A DNA stretch of 64,000 bases from the NCBI GenBank assembly GCA_026392255.1, contig JAPLCJ010000047.1:62001-126000 (forward strand), in the 5' to 3' direction. Position numbers and translations under genes: made by a program. Shown one piece after another: positions 1-63,809 of the stretch (position 1 is the stretch's first letter; the number at the start of each line of letters is the position of its first letter). The notes under the pieces were generated by a model, which was not told where the DNA came from, ran no database searches, and saw nothing but the letters and a program-made list of their open reading frames with translations. Source of the stretch: Solirubrobacterales bacterium. Lineage in GTDB: Bacteria > Actinomycetota > Thermoleophilia > Solirubrobacterales > Solirubrobacteraceae.

Positions 1-858
1 GAAACTGGGAGCGTTGCGCTAGTCGTTACGTCCGACTTCGGATCCCGGCAGATGGGCAAGCCAACTACGGAAAGAGCAACCCAATCAGAGACAGCTATGC
101 GACAGTTGCAGCGCCTAAAGCGAGTAAAGACAAGCTACGGAGGGCGTTTCGTCGAGTCGATCAATGGTCTCTCAGGGGGCTCATCGGGTGGGAGCTCTTT
201 TGACTGGTTCTTCTTCGTAAATGGAGTGGAGTCAGCTGTTGGAGCGGCCGAGGTAACGCTCACCGAAGGGGATGACATTTGGTGGGACCACCGTGACTGG
301 AGCGCGGCAAGCCATGTTCCGGCGGTTGTAGGTGCGTGGCCACATCCGTTCTCCGCTGGACCGTCCGGGAAGCGTCTCCCGACCCGGCTGCTGTGTTCTC
401 CAACCGCAGCCACGGCCTGCGCCCGAGTGGAGGCTGCCCTCGCCGCTGAAGGGATCGTTGCGACGCGGGGCAAGCTAGGCACGGAAGGCAAGTCGAAGGG
501 ACCGATGATCGTCGTCGGGACTTGGGGCGAGATTCGAACCGACCCCGCGGCGAGGCTCCTCCTCGGTGGCCCGGACGAGTCCGGTGTGTATGTGCAGCCC
601 ACGCGGAGCGGGTCAACATTCAATGTCCTAAACCCCAAGGGTTCGCTGGCCGCCGCTTATTCGGCTGGGACAGGCCTAGTTGCAGCCACGGTGGTCGGCG
701 GAGCATCACCGACGTGGTTAGTCACGGGTACAGACACGAAAGGCCTGAACCTTGCGTCTGGGGCACTAAACCTTCGGTCTCTCACTCGCCACTTTGCGGT
801 GGTTGTGACTGACGGCGGCAGGGTTCTGTCGGCGCCGATGCTGGCAGGCAAACGTTGA
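1..858 (+). CDS. DUF4430 (transcobalamin C-terminal-like) protein, 5' partial
   Basis: The reading frame is open from base 1, so the gene starts upstream; 285 residues are visible. The first ~80 residues match the DUF4430 pattern: a beta-rich stretch ending in ETAM, then RYGG-like TSYGGRFVESINGL, then FDWFFFVNGVES and GDDIWWDHRDW. DUF4430 corresponds to the beta domain of animal transcobalamin and intrinsic factor. The remaining ~170 residues form a second domain I do not recognise, containing GTWGEIRTD and TWLVTGTD. The signal peptide, if any, is outside the window. The stop codon overlaps the TTG start of the ECF T-component gene, so translation is coupled. A role as extracytoplasmic ligand-binding partner of the transporter is inferred from the domain and operon. 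Confidence 0.8.
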   Translation, partial: ETGSVALVVTSDFGSRQMGKPTTERATQSETAMRQLQRLKRVKTSYGGRFVESINGLSGGSSGGSSFDWFFFVNGVESAVGAAEVTLTEGDDIWWDHRDWSAASHVPAVVGAWPHPFSAGPSGKRLPTRLLCSPTAATACARVEAALAAEGIVATRGKLGTEGKSKGPMIVVGTWGEIRTDPAARLLLGGPDESGVYVQPTRSGSTFNVLNPKGSLAAAYSAGTGLVAATVVGGASPTWLVTGTDTKGLNLASGALNLRSLTRHFAVVVTDGGRVLSAPMLAGKR

Positions 859-1724
859 GCAACCCTTCCACCCCAACCGCGCTCTCGGCCGCTCGGGCTG
901 GCGTCGCAGCCATCTGGTGCGGGACCCTGATGGCCGCCGCCCTGACTATTGACCATCCGGTTGGCCTGCTCGCACTGCTAGCGGCCGTCATCTGGGCCGG
1001 TTGGCTAGCCGGGGCTGGGGAGCAACTCCGCAAGGCTTCCCGTTTCGCGTTACCTCTAGCGCTGATGGTCGTTGCAATAAACGCGATCGTCTCGCGTGAT
1101 GGCGTGACGGTTGTCGCCCGACTTGGTGAGGTCCCGATATTGGGACGGCTGGATATAACGCTAGAGGGCCTCGTCTATGGGGCCGTGCTTGGACTCCGGG
1201 TGGTCTTAGTCAGCTTGGCCGCCGTTCTGTTCACCGCCGTCGTGGATCAGGATGAGCTGCTCGGCCTAGTTAGGAGGCGGAGCGGCCGCTTTGGGCTAGC
1301 AGCCTCTGTGGCAGGCCGACTGATGCCCCTACTGGCCGCGGACGGGGCTCGGATGGCCGAGGCCCGTAAGGCGGTCCCCAAGACACTTGCAGTATCCCGC
1401 TTTGACCTGGTGTCATCAATCGCGACCGGTGCACTCGACCGTGCTGCGGATGCGGCTGCCGCGCTGGAGCTGCGCGGTCTTGGTGAGGGCCCGTGTCTCG
1501 CACCGCGCGCACACCGCCCATGGTCACGACACGACTTCGGACTACTGATCTCCAGCTTCGCGTGCTGTGTTGTGGTCGCAGCAGCTTTAGTCGGCGGGTG
1601 GGTGGACTTTCAGAGCGCGAGCTCAATACGCGCTGCTTGGGGGCTTGGCCTGGCTGTGACGGTCCTCGCGCTCCCTCTAGTCCTTGTTGCACCGCTGTTT
1701 GAGCGCAGAGGGGTTGGTCAGTGA
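855..1724 (+). CDS. ECF transporter transmembrane component (EcfT)
   Basis: This 289-residue protein has several hydrophobic segments and a cytoplasmic loop around residues 165-215. The loop ends in ALELRGLG, which resembles the coupling-helix A-R-G motifs by which EcfT contacts the two ATPases. It starts at TTG, overlapping the previous stop (TTGA), and ends overlapping the ATPase start (GTGATG). In ECF transporters the T component links ATP hydrolysis to toppling of the substrate-binding S component. The substrate cannot be read from this subunit. The family call is firm from fold-like features plus position before a double ATPase and an S component. Confidence 0.8.
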   Translation: MSNPSTPTALSAARAGVAAIWCGTLMAAALTIDHPVGLLALLAAVIWAGWLAGAGEQLRKASRFALPLALMVVAINAIVSRDGVTVVARLGEVPILGRLDITLEGLVYGAVLGLRVVLVSLAAVLFTAVVDQDELLGLVRRRSGRFGLAASVAGRLMPLLAADGARMAEARKAVPKTLAVSRFDLVSSIATGALDRAADAAAALELRGLGEGPCLAPRAHRPWSRHDFGLLISSFACCVVVAAALVGGWVDFQSASSIRAAWGLGLAVTVLALPLVLVAPLFERRGVGQ

Positions 1725-3361
1725 TGGAAAGGCGCGTCGCGATTCAGCTCATCGATTTCTCCTACAAGCATCCCGAGGGCAGCCGTAAGGCGCTGGATGA
1801 CATCAATGTTTCCATTCGCGAAGGGGAGTTTGTGATCATTGCCGGAGAGTCAGGAGCGGGGAAATCAACCCTGGTCAGGGCAATTGCTGGCCTCGCCCCA
1901 GCCTTTGATGGCGGAACGGCGGCTGGGAGCATTTCGGTCTGCGGTCTGAACACTCGGGATAACGGTCCGGCTGGCATCGCTCGTGTCTGCGGAACCGTTC
2001 TTCAGGATCCGGAGCGTCAAGTTGTGATGAACACCGTTAGGGCTGAACTTGCTCTGCCGCTCGAGAGCCGGGGCAACAGTGCTGCTGCGACGGCGAGGGG
2101 AGTGGAGGAAGTTTCCCTGCTGCTCGGAATCGGGGACCTTCTGGACCGGCGCCTGCAAGACCTCTCTGGGGGAGAGCTTCAACGCGTCTCCATTGCGGCA
2201 GCCCTGGCTGTACGACCCGCGGTTCTGCTTCTGGACGAGCCCACTTCACAACTGGATCCGGTCGCAGCCGATGACCTCGCCTGGAGTCTGCGACGGCTAA
2301 ACGAGGAGCAGGGGATCACCGTTGTGGTCGCTGAGCAGCGGTTGGAGCGGCTTCTGCCAGCGGCGGACAGAGTCTTGGCATTGGCTGATGGGGCGATCGC
2401 CTGTGACTCTGGGCCAGAGGAGTTCCTCCGTTGGGGGAGCGCAGGGACCGCATCGCTCAGCACGCCAGCAGCGCGGCTGTTTGTTGCGAGCGGGCTAACT
2501 GACCTCCCAATCTCGGTTAAGGAAGCTAAAGCCTCGCTGGCTCGAAAGGGCTTCAGCGTGGGTGACCACCCACCAGACGAGAAGATGGAAGCACCAAGTA
2601 AGCGATCAAGGCTAGCTGTGAGACTCTCTCGGAGCAACCCTCCAACAGATGCCGCACTCGAGATCTCAGGGCTGTGGGATGAGCGTCCTGACGGGAGGGC
2701 GATCCTGAAGGGAATCAACCTGTCAGTCGAGCCTGGTGAGGTGATCGCCCTGATGGGTCGTAACGGCGCGGGAAAGTCAACGCTTTTGCGGCATGCAGCA
2801 GGCCTGCTCCAGCCCTCCCGGGGAAGCGCCTCCGTCAGCGGCCGAGTCGCGTACCTTTCTCAGACCCCGGCGGCCTACCTCGCCGGTGAGCGTCTGGGCG
2901 ACTGCGTGCCGATTGAACTTCTAGAGGAGGCCGGCCTAGCTGGACTGGCTGACAGGCATCCACGGGACCTTTCGGGTGGCGAGATTCAGCGAGCAGCGCT
3001 GGCACTTGTCACGGCCTCCGGCGCTGGGGTTGAGCCGCCCACCATGGTGCTCTTGGACGAGCCAACCCGCGGCATGGATCTGGGTAATGCCGAGGGGCTC
3101 CTTGCGCGGATCAGCTACCACGCCAGTCAGGGGGCCGGCGTTGTCGTCGCGACGCACGATCCTGAACTCGCTGCGGCTGCAGCCCAACGAACGGTTCTGA
3201 TGGGGGAGGGCACTGTCCTCGTGGATGCCCCGAGCGTTGAGGTCCTGACCGGCGGCTGGTACTTCGCAACGGAGACTGCTCGGATCCTAGACGGGGCCGG
3301 TGGAGCCTTGCTGCCGCAGCAGGGCGCGGCCGTACTCACGGCGGCAGGGGTAGGACGATGA
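1721..3361 (+). CDS. ECF transporter ATPase, two ABC domains fused (EcfA-EcfA')
   Basis: Two complete ABC ATPase domains lie in one 546-residue chain. Domain 1 has Walker A GESGAGKST (about residues 42-50), signature LSGGELQR and Walker B LLLDEPTSQLD. Domain 2 has Walker A GRNGAGKST (about 346-354), signature LSGGEIQR and LLDEPTRGMD. Most ECF systems use two separate ATPase genes; fusion as here is known in actinobacteria. The start is GTG at 1721 or ATG at 1724; both overlap the ecfT stop. The gene ends in an ATGA overlap with the S-component gene. It powers uptake by the membrane complex encoded around it. Confidence 0.88.
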   Translation: MMERRVAIQLIDFSYKHPEGSRKALDDINVSIREGEFVIIAGESGAGKSTLVRAIAGLAPAFDGGTAAGSISVCGLNTRDNGPAGIARVCGTVLQDPERQVVMNTVRAELALPLESRGNSAAATARGVEEVSLLLGIGDLLDRRLQDLSGGELQRVSIAAALAVRPAVLLLDEPTSQLDPVAADDLAWSLRRLNEEQGITVVVAEQRLERLLPAADRVLALADGAIACDSGPEEFLRWGSAGTASLSTPAARLFVASGLTDLPISVKEAKASLARKGFSVGDHPPDEKMEAPSKRSRLAVRLSRSNPPTDAALEISGLWDERPDGRAILKGINLSVEPGEVIALMGRNGAGKSTLLRHAAGLLQPSRGSASVSGRVAYLSQTPAAYLAGERLGDCVPIELLEEAGLAGLADRHPRDLSGGEIQRAALALVTASGAGVEPPTMVLLDEPTRGMDLGNAEGLLARISYHASQGAGVVVATHDPELAAAAAQRTVLMGEGTVLVDAPSVEVLTGGWYFATETARILDGAGGALLPQQGAAVLTAAGVGR

Positions 3362-5235
3362 GTTGGGGGTTGGCATCAATGGTCCTTCTCTTGGTGGCCT
3401 TGGGGACACAGCTGGTCGCCTTTGAAAGGGGCCAGATGTCAGCTAGGTCGCTGGCTCTAGTCGCAGCGCTCGCAGCCCTGGCCGTTGCTGGACGATTGGC
3501 GTTTGCGCCGTTGCCCAATGTCAAGCCGACAACGGACATTGTTCTGATTGCCGGATTTGCCCTCGGAGCCTCACCCGGTTTTGCAGTGGGTGCTCTTACG
3601 GCGCTGGTATCCAACATGGTCTTCGGGCAGGGCCCCTGGACCCCTTGGCAGATGTTTGCCTGGGGTCTGGTTGGCCTTTTTGGAGCCCTGCTCGCAAAAG
3701 CCACCCGTGGAAGGATCGGACGCTGGCAACTCGCGGCGGCCGGAGCATTGGCCGGCCTTGGCTACGGCGTCGTGATGGATGTCTCACAGTGGCTGCTCTA
3801 CGGCGGGACACCCAAGCAATCGACGCTGATTGCCTACTCCATTACTTCCCTCCCTTGGAACATCGCTCACGCAGCGGGGAATGCTGTCTTTGCGATCGCC
3901 TTCGGTCCTGCTCTGATCTCAGCCGTTCGGCGCGCATCACAGAAGCTCCAGCCAGTCTGGCTTCCACCTGGAGTCCCGATGCACGGGTTTGCCATTCCAG
4001 CCCTCTTAGTAGCTGTGGTCGCGTTCCCGGCTCTGGCTGGGGGAGCGCGCCACGCGGTCTCGTCGGGATCAGCTGGCCAATCAGTCAGGTCCCAAAGTCT
4101 GAGATGGCTCCTAGCAGCGCAGAACCGTGACGGCGGCTTTCCAGAATCCCCGGGCAGCGGGGCGACATCATCCCCCCGCGAGACCGCTTGGGCTGCTCTG
4201 GCACTAGCCGCGGCAGGGAAAGACCTCTCCCGTGTGCGCAAGTCGGGAGGGCGGTCAGTGGTCGAGGCCCTCATTTCTGACTCTCGACAGATGGTGTCCC
4301 AGACGGGTGATTCACCAGAGGAGCGAGCGGGCTGGGAGGAACGGCTGGCACTTGCAGCTGCTGCTGCCGGGGCTAACCCGCATGACTTCGGCGGCCACAA
4401 CTTGGTCGCAGAGGTACGCGCTCGTATCGGTAAGTCAGGGGCAGTCAACTACTACGGGCCGGGTGACCCATCCGTAAACCTGACCGCCTACGCCATTCTC
4501 GCGCTCAGAGCCGGCGGGGTACCGCGCAACGATCGGGCACTCAGCAGAGCAGCGCGCTGGCTGGGCCGTCAGCAGCAACGTGATGGTGGCTTCTCTATCT
4601 CACCGAGAGGAGCAGTCGTGCGCAACGGCGATGTGGATACCACGGGTGCAGTTCTTCAGGCACTCCGTTCGGCGGGCCGCAGCCGCGATTTGGTGGTCGG
4701 TAGAGCACATGCATTTCTGGTTTCAGCCCAGGGAAGTGGTGGAGGCTTTAGCGCCTCAACCAGCTCAGGCGCCAATGCTCAATCGACCGCCATGGGGTTG
4801 CTCGGCCTAAGGGCCTTCCGTCTGGGCGGCTCGGCCTCGTCGATGAATGAGGCCTCAGGCTGGCTCGCGCGCTGTCTTGAATCATCTGGTCGAGTTGACT
4901 ACTCGCCGGCCGCTGGAGGTCGTTCCGCGTCGCGTCAGACGCCGGTCTGGGTCACCGCCCAGGTACTTCTAGCGGAGAGCGGACGCAACTTGCCAATTAT
5001 CACTCCGGTCCGTCCGGGCCGTTTTGGGGTGCCAGGATCAGCTGGGGTGAAAGGCGCCCCTCAGACGAGCGCTGCAAGCGCCGCTGCACGGAAGAAGAGG
5101 GCGAGAAAGGCAGAGGCCATAAGGGTCAAGCGGCTCAGGGTGGAGGCCGGGCGGGTTGCGTCTGTGAGCACCGCGGTCGTCGCAGGACACCTCCTCGGAG
5201 TACTCGTCAGGGCCTTCAGTGGAGCCAACCGCTAG
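3358..5235 (+). CDS. ECF S component fused to terpenoid-cyclase/prenyltransferase-like repeat domain
   Basis: The protein has 625 residues. Residues 1 to ~195 are hydrophobic and carry an S-component-like signature, with LPNVKPTTD near 52-60 followed by GFALGASPGFAVG and GQGPWTPWQM. A further hydrophobic segment (about 210-235) leads to a large alpha-helical region with repeated glycine-rich turns: QNRDGGF (~255), QQQRDGGF (~405) and AQGSGGGF (~456). These are typical of alpha/alpha-barrel prenyltransferase/squalene-cyclase repeats, the fold family of the alpha domain of transcobalamin. Catalytic DxDD-type residues are not evident, so binding rather than catalysis is likely. The C-terminus is Lys/Arg-rich, then hydrophobic. 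It overlaps the ATPase gene by ATGA. Substrate, perhaps a corrinoid, is inferred. Confidence 0.8.
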   Translation: MSWGLASMVLLLVALGTQLVAFERGQMSARSLALVAALAALAVAGRLAFAPLPNVKPTTDIVLIAGFALGASPGFAVGALTALVSNMVFGQGPWTPWQMFAWGLVGLFGALLAKATRGRIGRWQLAAAGALAGLGYGVVMDVSQWLLYGGTPKQSTLIAYSITSLPWNIAHAAGNAVFAIAFGPALISAVRRASQKLQPVWLPPGVPMHGFAIPALLVAVVAFPALAGGARHAVSSGSAGQSVRSQSLRWLLAAQNRDGGFPESPGSGATSSPRETAWAALALAAAGKDLSRVRKSGGRSVVEALISDSRQMVSQTGDSPEERAGWEERLALAAAAAGANPHDFGGHNLVAEVRARIGKSGAVNYYGPGDPSVNLTAYAILALRAGGVPRNDRALSRAARWLGRQQQRDGGFSISPRGAVVRNGDVDTTGAVLQALRSAGRSRDLVVGRAHAFLVSAQGSGGGFSASTSSGANAQSTAMGLLGLRAFRLGGSASSMNEASGWLARCLESSGRVDYSPAAGGRSASRQTPVWVTAQVLLAESGRNLPIITPVRPGRFGVPGSAGVKGAPQTSAASAAARKKRARKAEAIRVKRLRVEAGRVASVSTAVVAGHLLGVLVRAFSGANR

Positions 5236-5247: not shown

Positions 5248-6378
5248 ATGAGAATCGGTGTCCCAAAAGAGACAGCAGTAGGCGAGCAGCGAGTAGCTCT
5301 CGTTCCCGACGTCGTTGCCAAGCTGACCAAGAGCGGTCATGAGGTAATCGTTGAGGCAGGGGCTGGCGCTGGGGCAATGTTGCCCGACGCGGCTTACACC
5401 GAAGCTGGCGCCAAGATTGTTTCCTCCCGGAGCGAGGTCATCGCAGCGGACGTCGTTGTCGCGGTTGCCCCACCTTCACTTGAGGAGACCGCAGCACTCA
5501 GGTCAGACTCGGTTCTTGTCGGTTTCCTTCAGCCCCTGAGCAACGGCGAGGGCGTCAAGGCACTTGCAGCTTCTGGCGTAACCGCATTTGCGATGGAGTC
5601 CGTTCCTCGGATCAGCCGAGCGCAGTCAATGGATGCACTCTCCTCGCAGAGCAACGTTGCCGGTTATCGCGCAGCGCTGATTGGAGCACAGGAACTTGGC
5701 CGCTTCTACCCAATGCTTATGACTGCAGCGGGAACCATTCGTCCAGCAACCGTTCTTGTCCTTGGAGCCGGCGTTGCTGGCCTTCAGGCAATCGCCACCG
5801 CTCGGCGCCTTGGCTCTGTTGTCCAGGCCTTCGATGTCCGCGCAGCTGTTAAGGAGCAGGTTGAGTCGCTTGGAGCGAAGTTCCTTGAGTTTGACCTTGG
5901 TGGAGACCTTGAAGGTGAAGGTGGTTATGCCAAGGAGCTCACTGATGAGCAGCGCGCTCGCCAGCAGGAACTTCTTACGGAGGCGATCGGCAAGGTTGAC
6001 GTTGTCATCACAACAGCGCTTGTCCCGGGCCGGCCAGCACCCAAGCTGGTAACCGCTGCTGCGGTTGAGGGCATGAAGCCTGGCTCAGTTGTTGTTGACC
6101 TCGCAGGCGAGGCTGGCGGTAACTGCGAGCTCACTCAGCCGGGCGAGACAATCATTCACTCCGGAGTAAAGATCTGTGCACCGCTCAACATTCCTTCAAC
6201 AATGGCCGAGCACGCATCGCAGCTTTACGCCAAGAACATTGAATCGATTCTTGACCTAATGACCGGTGAAGACGGGAACCTCGCGCTTGACTTTGAGGAC
6301 GAGATTATCTCGGGAGCCTGCATCACTAAGGGCGGGCAGATCGTCAACGAAGGCGCCAAGGCCGCGGCCGGCCAGTAG
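5248..6378 (+). CDS. pntAA: NAD(P) transhydrogenase, alpha subunit part 1
   Basis: This 376-residue soluble subunit binds NAD(H) and, with the next two genes, couples hydride transfer between NADH and NADP+ to proton movement across the membrane, normally supplying NADPH. It begins MRIGVPKET as in the alanine dehydrogenase/PNT family. It carries the Rossmann fingerprint VLGAGVAGLQAIATA followed by acidic FD (about residues 170-195), and a late VVDLAGEAGGN motif. The alpha subunit is split into soluble (PntAA) and membrane (PntAB) parts, the three-gene form found in many actinobacteria and alphaproteobacteria. The ATG start lies 12 nt after the ECF operon. Confidence 0.93.
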   Translation: MRIGVPKETAVGEQRVALVPDVVAKLTKSGHEVIVEAGAGAGAMLPDAAYTEAGAKIVSSRSEVIAADVVVAVAPPSLEETAALRSDSVLVGFLQPLSNGEGVKALAASGVTAFAMESVPRISRAQSMDALSSQSNVAGYRAALIGAQELGRFYPMLMTAAGTIRPATVLVLGAGVAGLQAIATARRLGSVVQAFDVRAAVKEQVESLGAKFLEFDLGGDLEGEGGYAKELTDEQRARQQELLTEAIGKVDVVITTALVPGRPAPKLVTAAAVEGMKPGSVVVDLAGEAGGNCELTQPGETIIHSGVKICAPLNIPSTMAEHASQLYAKNIESILDLMTGEDGNLALDFEDEIISGACITKGGQIVNEGAKAAAGQ

Positions 6379-6390
6379 CCAAAGGAAACC

Positions 6391-6711
6391 ATGGATCTTC
6401 TTACTGAAATCGCAATCCTCGTTCTCGCAGCCTTCGTTGGCTTTGAGGTCATCTCCAAGGTGCCAAACACACTGCACACGCCTCTCATGTCTGGCACCAA
6501 CGCCATCCACGGCATCGTCTTGGTTGGTGCTCTTCTGGTTGTTTCGCAGGCATCGTCGACGCTTTCGAAAGTACTTCTGGTCGTCGCGGTTGCCTTCGGC
6601 ACGATCAACGTGATCGGTGGCTTCCTCGTAACTGACCGCATGCTCTCGATGTTCAAACGCAAGCCGGAACCGGTTAAGGAAGAGGCGCCAGCCGACGAGG
6701 TGGAGTCATGA
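6391..6711 (+). CDS. pntAB: NAD(P) transhydrogenase, alpha subunit part 2 (membrane)
   Basis: A 106-residue membrane protein with about three transmembrane helices, including the conserved region around VPNTLHTPLMSGTNAIHGIV that belongs to the proton channel. The C-terminal tail is acidic. It follows pntAA by 12 nt with a clear AAAGGA ribosome-binding site and overlaps pntB by ATGA. It forms the transmembrane domain together with the N-terminal half of PntB. Confidence 0.92.
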   Translation: MDLLTEIAILVLAAFVGFEVISKVPNTLHTPLMSGTNAIHGIVLVGALLVVSQASSTLSKVLLVVAVAFGTINVIGGFLVTDRMLSMFKRKPEPVKEEAPADEVES

Positions 6712-8168
6712 CCCTCGCCACTGTCTGGTTCCGCAGTCCCGATTTCATCAACGCTCTCTACATCCTTGCCTTCACGCTCTTTATTGTCGGTCTGCGTGGA
6801 TTGACCGGCCCTAATACTGCCGTCCGAGGCAATAAGATTGCGGCCGTTGGCATGGTGATCGCCGTTGTAGCGACCTTGCTGCTCGGCGAGCGACAGGTTC
6901 ATGGCGAGACACTCCCAGCCATCATCAGCGGGTGGAGTGACGTCTGGCTGATCGTCCTCGGCCTTGTAATCGGCACCGCGATCGGTATACCTTCCGCGGT
7001 CAAGGTCAAGATGACGGCGATTCCACAGATGGTCGCTCTTTTTAACGGCGTGGGCGGTGGCGCTGTAGCCCTGATTTCGTGGTCTGAGTACCGGCACGCA
7101 CTCGAGTCAGGTGGTAACCCTGAGCTTCAGATCTTGATCCCTACGCTCTTTGCAGCCATCATCGGATCCGTCTCGTTCTGGGGTTCCAACATTGCATTCG
7201 GCAAGCTCCAAGAGATTCTTCCTGGGCGCCCAATCCAGCTTCCTGGTCAGCAGTTCATCAATCTTGCGCTACTGATCATTTCGGTCGGCTGTGCCGTTCT
7301 GATCGCCACTGGTAGGGAGTCAGAGGCCCTCTTCATCGGCATCCTCGTCTCAGCAGCACTATTGGGCAACCTTGTCGTGTTGCCGATTGGCGGAGCTGAC
7401 ATGCCCGTCGTCATCTCGCTGCTCAATGCGTTCACCGGTCTGTCTGCAGCTGCCGCGGGTATCGCGCTTCAGAACACTGTGCTGATTGTCGCCGGCATGA
7501 TCGTCGGCGCGTCAGGCACCATCCTCACCAACTTGATGGCAGTGGCAATGAATCGCTCGGTACCTTCGATCATCGCCGGTGGATTCGGTGGCGGAACAAT
7601 CGCCACTGGTGGTGGTGACGACGACAACGAGGGCAAGAGCGTCCGCTCCACCAGCGCCCAAGACGTCGCCATCCAGCTTGCATTCGCGCGGCTCGTGGTG
7701 ATCGTCCCCGGATACGGCATGGCTGTGGCCCAAGCCCAGCACGCAGTGAAGGAACTGACCCGTGTCCTCGAAGGCAAGGGTGTCGAGGTTCGGTTTGGCA
7801 TCCATCCAGTTGCCGGCCGTATGCCAGGTCATATGAATGTTCTGCTTGCCGAGGCTGATGTTCCTTACGACCAGCTCAAGGAGATGGACGACATCAACCC
7901 TGAGTTCCCTCGCACCGATGTCGTCTTGGTGATTGGTGCCAACGACGTAACTAACCCTGCAGCCAAGGACTCTCCCGAGTCACCGATCTACGGAATGCCG
8001 ATCCTTGAGGTCAGCAATGCGGGTGCTGTCGTCGTCCTCAAGCGTTCGATGGGAGCTGGCTTTGCTGGCATCGACAACCCTCTCTTCTACGACGAGAAAA
8101 CATCACTTTTGTTCGGTGACGCCAAGGAATCAGTCGGCGAGATCACCGCTGAGGTTCAGTCGCTCTAA
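6708..8168 (+). CDS. pntB: NAD(P) transhydrogenase, beta subunit
   Basis: This 486-residue protein has an N-terminal membrane half of about eight or nine helices, a hinge rich in Gly and Asp around residues 300-320, and a C-terminal NADP(H)-binding domain. That domain has VIVPGYGMAVAQAQ, RFGIHPVAGRMPGHMNVLLAEA and IGANDVTNP, all hallmarks of PntB. It completes the pntAA-pntAB-pntB unit and overlaps pntAB by 4 nt. Length and motifs are those of a complete, working enzyme. Confidence 0.95.
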   Translation: MTLATVWFRSPDFINALYILAFTLFIVGLRGLTGPNTAVRGNKIAAVGMVIAVVATLLLGERQVHGETLPAIISGWSDVWLIVLGLVIGTAIGIPSAVKVKMTAIPQMVALFNGVGGGAVALISWSEYRHALESGGNPELQILIPTLFAAIIGSVSFWGSNIAFGKLQEILPGRPIQLPGQQFINLALLIISVGCAVLIATGRESEALFIGILVSAALLGNLVVLPIGGADMPVVISLLNAFTGLSAAAAGIALQNTVLIVAGMIVGASGTILTNLMAVAMNRSVPSIIAGGFGGGTIATGGGDDDNEGKSVRSTSAQDVAIQLAFARLVVIVPGYGMAVAQAQHAVKELTRVLEGKGVEVRFGIHPVAGRMPGHMNVLLAEADVPYDQLKEMDDINPEFPRTDVVLVIGANDVTNPAAKDSPESPIYGMPILEVSNAGAVVVLKRSMGAGFAGIDNPLFYDEKTSLLFGDAKESVGEITAEVQSL

Positions 8169-60168: not shown

Positions 60169-61460
60169 CCGACACACAGCAAGACAATCCATTCGCATCC
60201 ATTGAGGATGCTGTTGAAGACATCCGCCAAGGCAAGATGGTCATTGTCTGCGACGACGAGGACCGCGAGAACGAGGGCGACCTTGTCCTTGCCGCGCAGT
60301 TCGCTACATCTGAGGCGATCAACTTCATGATCCGCGAGGCCCGTGGACTTGTCTGTCTCGCCCTCACTCCTGAGCGCTGCGATGAACTCGAGCTACCTCT
60401 TCAGGCGGCCAAGAACGAGGATCCGCTGAAGACAGCCTTCACGATTGCGATTGACGCCAAGGAGGGCACCACAACCGGGATTTCCCCAGCTGAGCGGGCG
60501 CACACCATTCAAGTTGCCATTGCGGCTGACACCCGTCCGTCGGATCTGATCCACGGCGGTCACCTCTTTCCCCTCAAGTCGAAGGCTGGGGGCGTGCTTC
60601 AGCGAGCCGGTCATACGGAGGCGTCAGTCGACCTTGCGCGTCTAGCCGGCTTACATCCGTCGGGTGTGATTTGCGAAATCGTCAATGACGACGGTTCGAT
60701 GGCTCGCGTTAACGACTTGATCGAATACAAGGACCGCCACGGCTTGAAGATGATCACGATCCAGGATCTGATCGCATACCGTCGGCAGAACGATCGCCTC
60801 GTAGACAGGGTTGTCTCAACGGCGCTGCCAACAGGATTCGGGGCTTTCACTTGCGTTGGGTACCGATCCCAGGTTGATGGCAAGCACCACGTCGCGATGG
60901 TTAAGGGCGATGTGGCAGGCAAGTCAGATGTTCTGGTGCGGGTTCATTCTGAGTGCCTTACTGGCGACGTCTTCCACTCCCTTCGCTGCGATTGCGGCGA
61001 GCAGCTTGAATCGGCCCTGACAATGATTGAGCAGGAGGGAACTGGAGTCCTGCTTTACCTCAGTCAGGAGGGTCGCGGCATTGGACTCCTCAACAAGTTG
61101 AAGGCTTACAAACTTCAGGAGGAGGGCTACGACACTGTTGAAGCCAACCTTAAGCTGGGTCTTCCAGCCGACCTTCGTGACTATGGAATCGGCGCTCAGA
61201 TCCTCACGGACTTGGGCCTGAGCAGTATCCGAATTCTGACCAACAATCCGAAGAAGATCATTGGGCTGGAGGGCTACGGGCTCTCAGTTAGCGATCAGGT
61301 TCCGATCATCTCCACTCCGAATGTTCATAACGAGGCCTACCTTCGTGCCAAGGAGCAGCGCATGGGGCACATTCTTCATCACCAAGGGACTGAGGTGGAT
61401 GAGGACCTGCTCACTTCGCCCGAAGTTCACCAGCCTGGGACTGACTCGGGGCAAGAGTGA
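60165..61460 (+). CDS. ribBA: DHBP synthase / GTP cyclohydrolase II
   Basis: A 431-residue fusion. The N-terminal half ([33 protein letters not shown]) makes 3,4-dihydroxy-2-butanone 4-phosphate. The C-terminal half ([23 protein letters not shown] with zinc Cys, [15 protein letters not shown]) opens GTP. Both halves keep their active-site residues. Together they supply the two precursors of lumazine. Overlaps ribE (ATGA) and ribH (GTGA). Confidence 0.97.
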
Positions 61461-61897
61461 GTCTGACTGAGCCTACGTTTGCGATTGTTGCGGCAGATTT
61501 CTACGGTGATCTGGCCGAGCGACTCGTGGCCGGTGCCACCGCAGAGCTGAGCGAGGCGGGTGCGGCTTCAATAGAGAACTTTCGAGTACCCGGTGCATTT
61601 GAGCTTCCATTCGCGTCCCGTGAGCTTGCGCTCTCAGGGCGGTTCGACGGGATCATCTGCGTTGGCGCTGTGATTAGGGGAGAGACTGACCACTACGACT
61701 ACGTCTGCTCGGAGGCGGCTCGGGGCATTCTGCAGGTTGGGCTCGAGACCGGCATTCCCGTCGGCTTCGGGGTCTTGACCGTTGACAGTCTGGAGCAAGC
61801 ACTCGCTAGATCCGGCGGGGATAAACGCGACAGCGGCCGTCATGCAGCTAGCGCCGTTCTCGCCCAGCTTGTGATCAAGCGCCAACTCAGCGCCTAG
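61457..61897 (+). CDS. ribH: 6,7-dimethyl-8-ribityllumazine synthase
   Basis: A 146-residue protein with FYGDLAERLVAGA, RVPGAFELPFASREL and CVGAVIRGETDHYDYVCSEAARGI, containing the catalytic His of the family. It forms icosahedral or pentameric shells in many bacteria. GTG 61457 overlaps ribBA. It ends the riboflavin operon. Confidence 0.96.
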   Translation: MSLTEPTFAIVAADFYGDLAERLVAGATAELSEAGAASIENFRVPGAFELPFASRELALSGRFDGIICVGAVIRGETDHYDYVCSEAARGILQVGLETGIPVGFGVLTVDSLEQALARSGGDKRDSGRHAASAVLAQLVIKRQLSA

Positions 61898-61932
61898 CCG
61901 CAGGCGGACTCCCTTCGGAGCGCTGTCGCATG

Positions 61933-61938
61933 TATGCT
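61933..61938 (+). promoter_or_regulatory. -10 box for leaderless rpmB
   Basis: TATGCT ends 8 nt before the rpmB ATG; the same hexamer precedes gcvT. No Shine-Dalgarno is present. Confidence 0.5.
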
Positions 61939-61946
61939 GTTGGTCT

Positions 61947-62138
61947 ATGGCACGTATATGTCACGTCTGCTCGAAGGGCCCTGCCTTCGGAAATAGCCGC
62001 AGCCACTCGATGCGCGCAACTCGTCGACGCTTCGACGCAAATCTTCAGCGTGTCCGAATCAACGACGGTGGGACTCCTCGCAGAGTTAACGTCTGCACAC
62101 GTTGCCTGAAGGCCGGCAAGGTCACTAAGGCCCGTTAG
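61947..62138 (+). CDS. rpmB: 50S ribosomal protein L28, zinc-binding form
   Basis: A 63-residue basic protein matching L28: MARICHVCSKGP, SHSMRATRRRFDANLQRVRI and VCTRCLKAGKV. Two CxxC pairs (CHVC, CTRC) make it the zinc-ribbon (C+) form. The TAG stop is 12 nt before the next gene, which begins the familiar rpmB-fakA-recG order. Confidence 0.96.
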   Translation: MARICHVCSKGPAFGNSRSHSMRATRRRFDANLQRVRINDGGTPRRVNVCTRCLKAGKVTKAR

Positions 62139-62150
62139 AGGGCTTCTGCC

Positions 62151-63809
62151 TTGAGCAGAGTGTCCAAGCACGACAACTCGCTTAGCCGCTTCAGAACTGT
62201 TGTTGCGGCTGCCCTAATTGAGCTTGACTCGCGACGCGAGGAGATCAACGATCTGAATGTCTTCCCGGTTGCCGATGGGGACACAGGAGACAACATGGTC
62301 CGCACACTGCAGAGTGTCGTCACCGAGCTGGACCGTCTGATCGAAAAGCAAGGAGAGGGGTCACTCGACTCCGTTGGTCGAGCAGAGATCGTTGACGCTG
62401 TCACCAATGCCGCCCTCCTTGGTGGGAGGGGAAACAGTGGCGTGATTCTCTCCCAGCTGATCCACGGCGCGGCCGAGGTGATGATCGACGACGACAAGCC
62501 GGTTGATGCGCTGATGCTTGCCCAGGCAATGAACCGAGCTTCAGAGCAGGCTAGGCGTTCGGTCAATGAGCCACGGGAAGGGACGATTCTCACCGTGATG
62601 GACGACATGGCTAAGAGCCTCCTTGCGCTGGTGGACGAGGGAGCGCCTGTTCTTCCGGATGACGTTGATGAGACAACGCAGAATGCGGCGTTGGCGACCT
62701 CACTTGAGGCAGCCGTCTCAGAGGGTGATGCTTCGGTCAGGCGTGGCCCCGACCTCCTCCCAGAGCTGAACGAGTTCGGTGTTACTGCCGATGCGGGTGG
62801 CTACGGGTTGGTTGTGATCTTTGCCGGCATCGTGGCGGCTCTGAAAGACGGGGTTGTCCCAGACGTTCAGCGGCACACAGCGCCTCGCGAGAAGCCTCGG
62901 CCCGCATCCCACGCCTCGTCAACGTTTCAGTACTGCGTCAACTTCGCGGTGGTGGGTGAGGGGCTTGACCGTGAGGCTTTCATTCCCGAACTTGAGCGGT
63001 TGGGGGACAGCTTGATGGTTGTTGACAGCAGGACCGGGTCGGTGCTCCGCGTGCACGTCCACTCGAATGATCGTGCGGCAGTTGAGGCCCTGTTTGAGGG
63101 CAAGGGTGAGATTCGCGACATTGAGGTTGCCGACATGTTTGCTCAGATCGATGCCCGTACGCGCAGACTTCGTGATGCTCGTTCGCTTGTTCTTGCGGTC
63201 GTTGCTGGTGATTCCATGAAGGCCCTGTTTGAGCTGGACACTTCTGTTGTGGTGCTCGATGGCGGCCCCTCGCTGAATCCCTCAACGGAGGAGATTCTCG
63301 ATGCGATTCACGCAGCTCCTGTTGAGGAGATCGTGCTCCTCACCGGCTCCAGGAATGTCACCCCCGCAGCGCTCAAGGCGGCTGAGCTGAGCGGTCGCCT
63401 CGTCGAAGTCGTCGAGACGGGGACTGTTCAGGAAGGTCTGGCGATCCTCCACCACCACTACACAGCGTCCTCGGCTGCTGACAACGCCGCCTCGCTGCGC
63501 GCTGCTCTTAGCAGTGTGACTGCTGGGGGTGTTGCCCCGGCCGAGAAGGATGATCCGCAAGGCCGCTATTCAACGGGAGATGCCGTTGGATTCGTTGAAG
63601 GCGAGCTTGTTGGCTGGGGCGAGCCTGAAGCTGCTCTCGCTGGGGTCCTAGCCGCGCTACCAACTGAGGCTGAGATCGTGACCTTGCTGGAGGGCTCAAC
63701 ATCACCATTTGGCTCCGGGCTTAAGGCCAGCGTGCAGGCCCGATTCCCTGAGGTTGAGCTTCTCAACGTCGACCACCCCGGTTGGTGGCTCCTCCTCGCC
63801 GTCGAATAA
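62151..63809 (+). CDS. fakA: DAK2-domain fatty acid kinase FakA-like protein (YloV family)
   Basis: A 552-residue protein. The N-terminal DAK2 domain has NVFPVADGDTGDNMVRTL and GGRGNSGVILSQLIHG for nucleotide binding. The middle and C-terminal domains are those of YloV/FakA, which phosphorylate fatty acids bound to a FakB partner. No fakB is in the window. Start TTG 62151 or GTG 62160; neither has a strong ribosome-binding site, though AGAGGG lies upstream. The rpmB-fakA-recG neighbourhood is conserved in Gram-positive bacteria. Confidence 0.88.
   Translation: MSRVSKHDNSLSRFRTVVAAALIELDSRREEINDLNVFPVADGDTGDNMVRTLQSVVTELDRLIEKQGEGSLDSVGRAEIVDAVTNAALLGGRGNSGVILSQLIHGAAEVMIDDDKPVDALMLAQAMNRASEQARRSVNEPREGTILTVMDDMAKSLLALVDEGAPVLPDDVDETTQNAALATSLEAAVSEGDASVRRGPDLLPELNEFGVTADAGGYGLVVIFAGIVAALKDGVVPDVQRHTAPREKPRPASHASSTFQYCVNFAVVGEGLDREAFIPELERLGDSLMVVDSRTGSVLRVHVHSNDRAAVEALFEGKGEIRDIEVADMFAQIDARTRRLRDARSLVLAVVAGDSMKALFELDTSVVVLDGGPSLNPSTEEILDAIHAAPVEEIVLLTGSRNVTPAALKAAELSGRLVEVVETGTVQEGLAILHHHYTASSAADNAASLRAALSSVTAGGVAPAEKDDPQGRYSTGDAVGFVEGELVGWGEPEAALAGVLAALPTEAEIVTLLEGSTSPFGSGLKASVQARFPEVELLNVDHPGWWLLLAVE

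What the first reader, a model, noticed from the sequence alone, without database searches (positions are those of the whole stretch)
1..5235. ECF importer carrying both modules of transcobalamin split over two components
The operon encodes a DUF4430 protein (the beta-domain family of animal transcobalamin/intrinsic factor) and an S component fused to an alpha/alpha-barrel repeat domain (the fold of the transcobalamin alpha domain), plus T and double-ATPase subunits in overlapping frames. I read this as a ligand-capture clamp split between an exported protein and the substrate-binding membrane subunit, perhaps for a corrinoid. The domain signals are in the sequence; the clamp and the ligand are inference.
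Basis: partly seen in the sequence, partly recalled or inferred. Interest (0 to 1): 0.8.

Follow-up and report, generated by a model that had tools for sequence, protein, structure and literature searches.

The report
B12 importer with built-in capture domain
This bacterium, which apparently cannot make vitamin B12, carries a B12-controlled import pump whose substrate-binding membrane subunit is fused to an outer barrel domain and is encoded next to two exported proteins related to the other half of the animal B12 carrier transcobalamin, so the pump probably has its own external B12 trap.

Summary
The operon (window 1-5235, starting about 1.1 kb upstream) encodes a DUF4430 lipoprotein, an ECF T subunit, a double ATPase, and an S subunit fused through a seventh membrane helix to a 12-helix alpha/alpha toroid. 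Upstream sequence settles the ligand class: the genome's only cobalamin riboswitch (87 bits) precedes the operon, beside a divergent cobalamin adenosyltransferase gene, and a second DUF4430-like exported protein comes first. The S domain's best solved relative is CbrT, the proven B12 S component. The genome has MetH and methylmalonyl-CoA mutase; no CbiC, CobS, MetE or BtuC-type permease was found. The operon, usually with the riboswitch, recurs across Solirubrobacterales; sister orders keep S and toroid as overlapping separate genes. A clostridial relative with toroid and DUF4430 in one chain matches transcobalamin, intrinsic factor and haptocorrin best in the PDB. Prior art: Burroughs 2007 predicted B12 scavenging by SLBB/toroid proteins encoded with CbiO/CbiQ. 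New here: toroid fused to the S component, and the CbrT/riboswitch link. Not shown: toroid-DUF4430 contact or B12 binding; by sequence the window's toroid is closest to squalene-hopene cyclase repeats.

The parts
1..858 (+). 3' part of the DUF4430 (SLBB, transcobalamin beta-domain family) lipoprotein; the full gene starts at window position -107 (G000:C41:61893-62858, 321 aa, lipobox-like LLAAGC)
   Evidence: Pfam PF14478 49.6 bits, full ORF in L002, 49.3 bits for the full protein
91..288 (+). DUF4430 domain proper
   Evidence: Pfam stretch aa 31-96 of the frame from base 1
855..1724 (+). ECF T component (EcfT/CbiQ family)
   Evidence: PF02361 32.5 bits
1721..3361 (+). double ECF ATPase (two ABC domains in one chain)
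   Evidence: two PF00005 stretches; TIGR04520 248.7 bits, below its equivalog cut-off of 315
3358..5235 (+). CbrT-like ECF S component fused to an alpha/alpha toroid, 625 aa
   Evidence: 31 homologous fusions
3364..3945 (+). S domain (aa 3-196), six membrane helices, CbrT family
   Evidence: best PDB sequence hit 6fnp_A = CbrT, E 7e-16; AF2 helices
3970..4053 (+). seventh membrane helix between S domain and toroid (approx. aa 205-232)
   Evidence: hydrophobic segment present in all 31 fusions; low pLDDT in the model; corresponds to the N-terminal hydrophobic segment or signal peptide of the separate toroid gene in sister orders
4063..4980 (+). alpha/alpha toroid, 12 helices (aa 236-541), predicted outside
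   Evidence: AF2 pLDDT mostly above 90; Pfam SQHop_cyclase_C/Prenyltrans; Foldseek to alpha6/alpha6 barrels

Best explanation
A cobalamin-riboswitch-controlled ECF importer for vitamin B12 (dedicated T/ATPase module, CbrT-like S component) with an extracytoplasmic capture apparatus of transcobalamin type. Two exported SLBB/DUF4430 proteins (one a predicted lipoprotein) and the toroid hung on the outside of the CbrT-like S subunit gather cobalamin, probably by sandwiching it between toroid and SLBB domain as in transcobalamin, and pass it to the S domain directly below; the T/double-ATPase module then drives its release inside, where PduO-type adenosyltransferase, MetH and methylmalonyl-CoA mutase use it. 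Shown: gene content, order, homology, riboswitch, no match for key biosynthesis enzymes or a BtuC-type importer in the draft genome, predicted toroid fold. Inferred: outside location of the toroid (from the seventh helix), ligand identity, clamp, hand-over.
For: Riboswitch RF00174 87.4 bits directly upstream, the only one in the genome; divergent PduO-type adenosyltransferase; S domain closest to CbrT, proven cobalamin/cobinamide S component (PMC5997447); B12 users MetH and MCM present; no CbiC, CobS, FecCD/BtuC or MetE match; riboswitch at the operon head in 18 of 20 Solirubrobacterales loci with that end held, in 5 of 5 sister-order loci and in several Bacillota; toroid + DUF4430 + T + ATPase + S association across Actinomycetota and Bacillota; natural toroid-DUF4430 fusions, one of which gives transcobalamin/IF/haptocorrin as its top 15 PDB fold matches.
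Against: No binding or transport data. The fold match of the fused relative does not reproduce the transcobalamin domain orientation. The window's own toroid matches SHC-type barrels first, with no transcobalamin in the top 50 nor in the profile hits shown. The draft genome is 92.8% complete, so absences are not proof. Topology rests on hydropathy and a low-confidence helix.
Confidence: 0.72

Rival explanations
1. B12 ECF importer, but toroid and DUF4430 proteins do not form a joint clamp: each binds corrinoid on its own, or they serve as surface scavengers or cell-wall tethers in series.
For: Two DUF4430 proteins for one toroid; in some related genomes the toroid lies at another locus; the fused model does not show the transcobalamin orientation.
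Against: Repeated fusion of toroid to DUF4430 in one chain, including the domain order of transcobalamin; conserved operon association.
Confidence: 0.3
2. The toroid is a membrane-bound class II terpene-cyclase-like enzyme that happens to be fused to the S component.
For: Best sequence and fold matches are squalene-hopene cyclases and type II cyclases; relatives keep a DxDDTA motif like the SHC catalytic motif.
Against: The window itself reads DVDTT, so the acidic motif is degenerate; most Bacillota toroids read DxDxT; predicted extracytoplasmic; constant company of DUF4430, CbrT and B12 riboswitch.
Confidence: 0.04
3. The importer takes up a B12 precursor or another corrinoid (cobinamide) rather than complete cobalamin.
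For: CbrT also binds and transports cobinamide (PMC5997447).
Against: No CobS match in the genome, so cobinamide could hardly be completed; MetH and MCM need complete cofactor.
Confidence: 0.12
4. The fusion is only a translational convenience: signal peptidase cuts after the seventh helix and the toroid is released as a separate protein.
For: In sister orders the toroid is a separate gene overlapping S by 4-10 nt with its own N-terminal hydrophobic segment; one has a clear signal peptide (L102).
Against: AxA motifs after the helix are hardly more frequent than composition predicts, 29 of 31 against 26.1 expected; many fusions show no C-terminal anchor, so a cut toroid would be lost.
Confidence: 0.25

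Closest known systems
ECF-CbrT (Lactobacillus delbrueckii, PDB 6FNP)
   Same: S component family, T and two ATPases, B12 context with PduO adenosyltransferase
   Different: 6FNP CbrT is 182 aa without an outer domain and shares its ECF module with other S components; here a dedicated module plus fused toroid and exported DUF4430 proteins
Bacterial transcobalamin-like SLBB/toroid proteins in CbiO/CbiQ operons (Burroughs et al. 2007, PMC1796856)
   Same: DUF4430/SLBB plus toroid plus ATPase and CbiQ-like T in operons, predicted B12 scavenging, second paralogous SLBB protein
   Different: The parts of the paper read here do not describe the toroid as part of the S component, nor name the S component or a riboswitch
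Animal transcobalamin, intrinsic factor, haptocorrin
   Same: alpha/alpha toroid plus DUF4430-type beta domain for B12
   Different: single secreted chain with no membrane transporter attached; the window toroid is nearer to SHC repeats by sequence
BtuCDF
   Same: B12 import with an extracytoplasmic binding component
   Different: unrelated permease and binding protein; no FecCD match in this genome

Membership tests
ECF transporter with dedicated module (group I) | S, T and two ATPase domains encoded together | tested here: met
CbrT S-component family | sequence similarity to CbrT over the membrane domain | tested here: met
   6fnp_A E 7.1e-16, aa 29-193
CbrT S-component family | cobalamin binding and ATP-dependent uptake | not testable with these tools
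   no wet-lab data; inferred from riboswitch and genome context
B12 riboswitch regulon | RF00174 aptamer at the 5' end of the operon | tested here: met
   87.4 bits at G000:C41:60900-61080, start codon of the first gene at 61107
Transcobalamin-like SLBB clade (DUF4430) | PF14478 above gathering score, exported | tested here: met
   49.3 bits for the full protein, lipobox-like N terminus
Transcobalamin proper | PF01122-type alpha domain | tested here: not met
   window toroid hits SQHop_cyclase_C/Prenyltrans, not PF01122; only a sub-threshold PF01122 hit in fused relative L065
Transcobalamin proper | both domains in one secreted chain | tested here: not met
   separate genes in the window
Transcobalamin-like clamp mechanism | ligand sandwiched between toroid and beta domain | tested here: inconclusive
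   fused relative: both domains align to TC/IF/HC (E about 1e-9) but orientation differs, rmsd about 23 A; the two window proteins were not modelled together
Squalene-hopene/class II cyclase | DxDD acid motif | tested here: not met
   window reads DVDT; of the motif only D427 and T429 are invariant in the fusions

The most novel reading that the evidence does not exclude
An ECF importer whose S component carries its own covalently attached extracellular half of a transcobalamin-type clamp, closed by a partner lipoprotein, so that the B12-loaded receptor and the translocating subunit are one molecule, although ECF transporters are generally taken to work without soluble binding proteins.
Probability: 0.42. 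Interest if true: 0.8.

Novelty: new variant of a known kind. Interest (0 to 1): 0.6.

Why it matters
How Gram-positive-type bacteria capture B12 outside the cell is poorly known. This operon ties three things together: the characterised CbrT importer family, the bacterial relatives of animal transcobalamin predicted in 2007, and cobalamin riboswitches. The fused form gives an experimentally simple test (one protein contains receptor half and translocator) of whether ECF importers can use an outer capture clamp, and offers a bacterial model for the origin of the animal B12 carriers.

Tried and rejected
Transcobalamin homology of the window toroid by sequence profile: only SHC, prenyltransferase and complement-type barrels in the 60 rows shown. 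DUF4430 profile against PDB sequences: nothing significant; the link to transcobalamin rests on Pfam/literature (PMC4350170, PMC1796856) and on the fold match of a relative. Signal-peptidase motif after the seventh helix: not clearly above chance. Single-sequence PDB search with fused L065: nothing. Some riboswitch positions mapped from the whole-genome search were discarded because a direct scan of the locus did not confirm them (L059, L053, L028). Streptomyces-like SCO2321-type locus (L101): toroid, T, ATPases and a weaker S match are present, but no riboswitch was found. Rodionov 2009 could not be read. A lead from memory only: the invariant D427 may correspond to a corrinoid-contacting Asp of transcobalamin; not verified.

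Full report
Observation. The window begins inside the operon. It is C41:62001-126000 of a 1.66-Mb draft genome, 92.8% complete. Full order on the + strand (contig C41): cobalamin riboswitch 60900-61080; exported DUF4430-like protein with an Ig-like tail 61107-61883; DUF4430 lipoprotein 61893-62858 (window -107 to 858); T component (window 855-1724); double ATPase (1721-3361); S-toroid fusion (3358-5235). The last three junctions overlap by 4 nt. A PduO-type cob(I)alamin adenosyltransferase (60245-60814, minus strand) is divergent to the operon. The closest named relatives are Solirubrobacterales metagenome genomes.

Ligand. The riboswitch scores 87.4 bits and is the only one in the genome. The S domain's best solved relative is CbrT of L. 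delbrueckii (6fnp, E 7e-16), shown to bind and import cobalamin and cobinamide (PMC5997447). The genome encodes MetH and methylmalonyl-CoA mutase, but no CbiC, CobS, MetE or FecCD-type permease was found, while each of these searches hit in 7 to 13 of the 14 control genomes. This points to a B12 auxotroph that needs intact cobalamin and has no BtuC-type importer. The incomplete draft is the caveat.

Conservation. Of 80 related loci, about 30 are Solirubrobacterales with the same fused S-toroid gene, and those whose contigs reach far enough show the order DUF4430-like, DUF4430, T, ATPases, S-toroid, often with the adenosyltransferase nearby; most others are Bacillota. A riboswitch sits at the operon head in 18 of the 20 Solirubrobacterales loci examined whose 5' end is held: 16 mapped by contig coordinates (L019, L023, L024 and L034 confirmed directly), plus L013 and L018; L007 and L028 lack one. 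It is also present in five sister-order loci (L098, L099, L100, L102, L103) and in Bacillota such as L048, L051, L060 and L073.

Origin of the fusion. In a survey of 150 genomes of the class, 21 show one continuous S-toroid match, all of them marked as the window's own genome, genus, family or order, while other families show S and toroid as adjacent pieces or at separate places. In the five sister-order loci the toroid gene starts 4 or 10 nt inside the end of the S gene and encodes an N-terminal hydrophobic segment, in L102 a clear signal peptide. All 31 fusions have a hydrophobic segment at this junction. The simplest reading is that two translationally coupled genes fused and the signal peptide became membrane helix 7, which places the toroid outside. 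Whether it is ever cut there is open; the signal-peptidase motif is not clearly above chance.

Structure. AlphaFold2 of the fusion (31-sequence alignment) gives a six-helix S domain, a poorly defined helix at 212-226, and a 12-helix toroid at 236-541 mostly above pLDDT 90. Foldseek places the toroid with SHC-like and prenyltransferase barrels; transcobalamin is not among the 50 matches listed. A natural clostridial protein with toroid and DUF4430 in one chain (L073:3495-4760) was modelled at mean pLDDT 90.4, pTM 0.68. Its 15 best PDB matches are all transcobalamin, intrinsic factor or haptocorrin, aligned over about 430-450 columns, but with TM-scores around 0.4 and rmsd about 23 A: the two domains match, their relative placement does not. 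So the domain pair is transcobalamin-like, and the closed clamp is unproven.

Second SLBB protein. The first protein of the operon is a divergent DUF4430 homologue: profile-profile probability 96.5%, E 9.5e-10, and 9 of 15 relatives hit PF14478.

Prior art. Burroughs et al. 2007 (PMC1796856) described SLBB plus toroid proteins in bacterial operons with CbiO/CbiQ, inferred B12 scavenging, noted second paralogous SLBB proteins, and proposed that animals acquired transcobalamin from Gram-positive bacteria. No paper found in the held library describes such a fusion, but the library is partial.

Verdict. A real, conserved, B12-linked ECF importer with extracytoplasmic transcobalamin-type modules: B12 uptake very likely, clamp plausible and testable.

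Noticed in passing
L037, L038, L040, L052, L060, L062 and other loci, mostly Bacillota (28 in all): The double ATPase and the CbrT-like S component are one open reading frame (about 800-1150 aa), which ties S to the motor and is at odds with models in which S leaves the ECF module during transport.
   Followed up: partly
L082:3-2816: A protein with several toroid-profile matches in a row (about four), in the same operon type.
   Followed up: no
L052:10662-16847 (minus strand): A 2061-aa protein with several DUF4430-profile stretches and a toroid, encoded convergently to the importer operon and with a possible riboswitch of its own.
   Followed up: no
L101 (Streptomyces-like SCO2321-type locus): The toroid gene has a C-terminal hydrophobic anchor and lies upstream of T, ATPases and a weaker S match without a detected B12 riboswitch.
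   Followed up: partly
window 5248-8168: Directly downstream are genes that look like NAD(P) transhydrogenase subunits (named from the sequence, not searched); the first starts 13 nt after the operon.
   Followed up: no
L057 (archaeon, DHVE2 group): An archaeal DUF4430-T-ATPase-S operon without a toroid in the stretch held.
   Followed up: no
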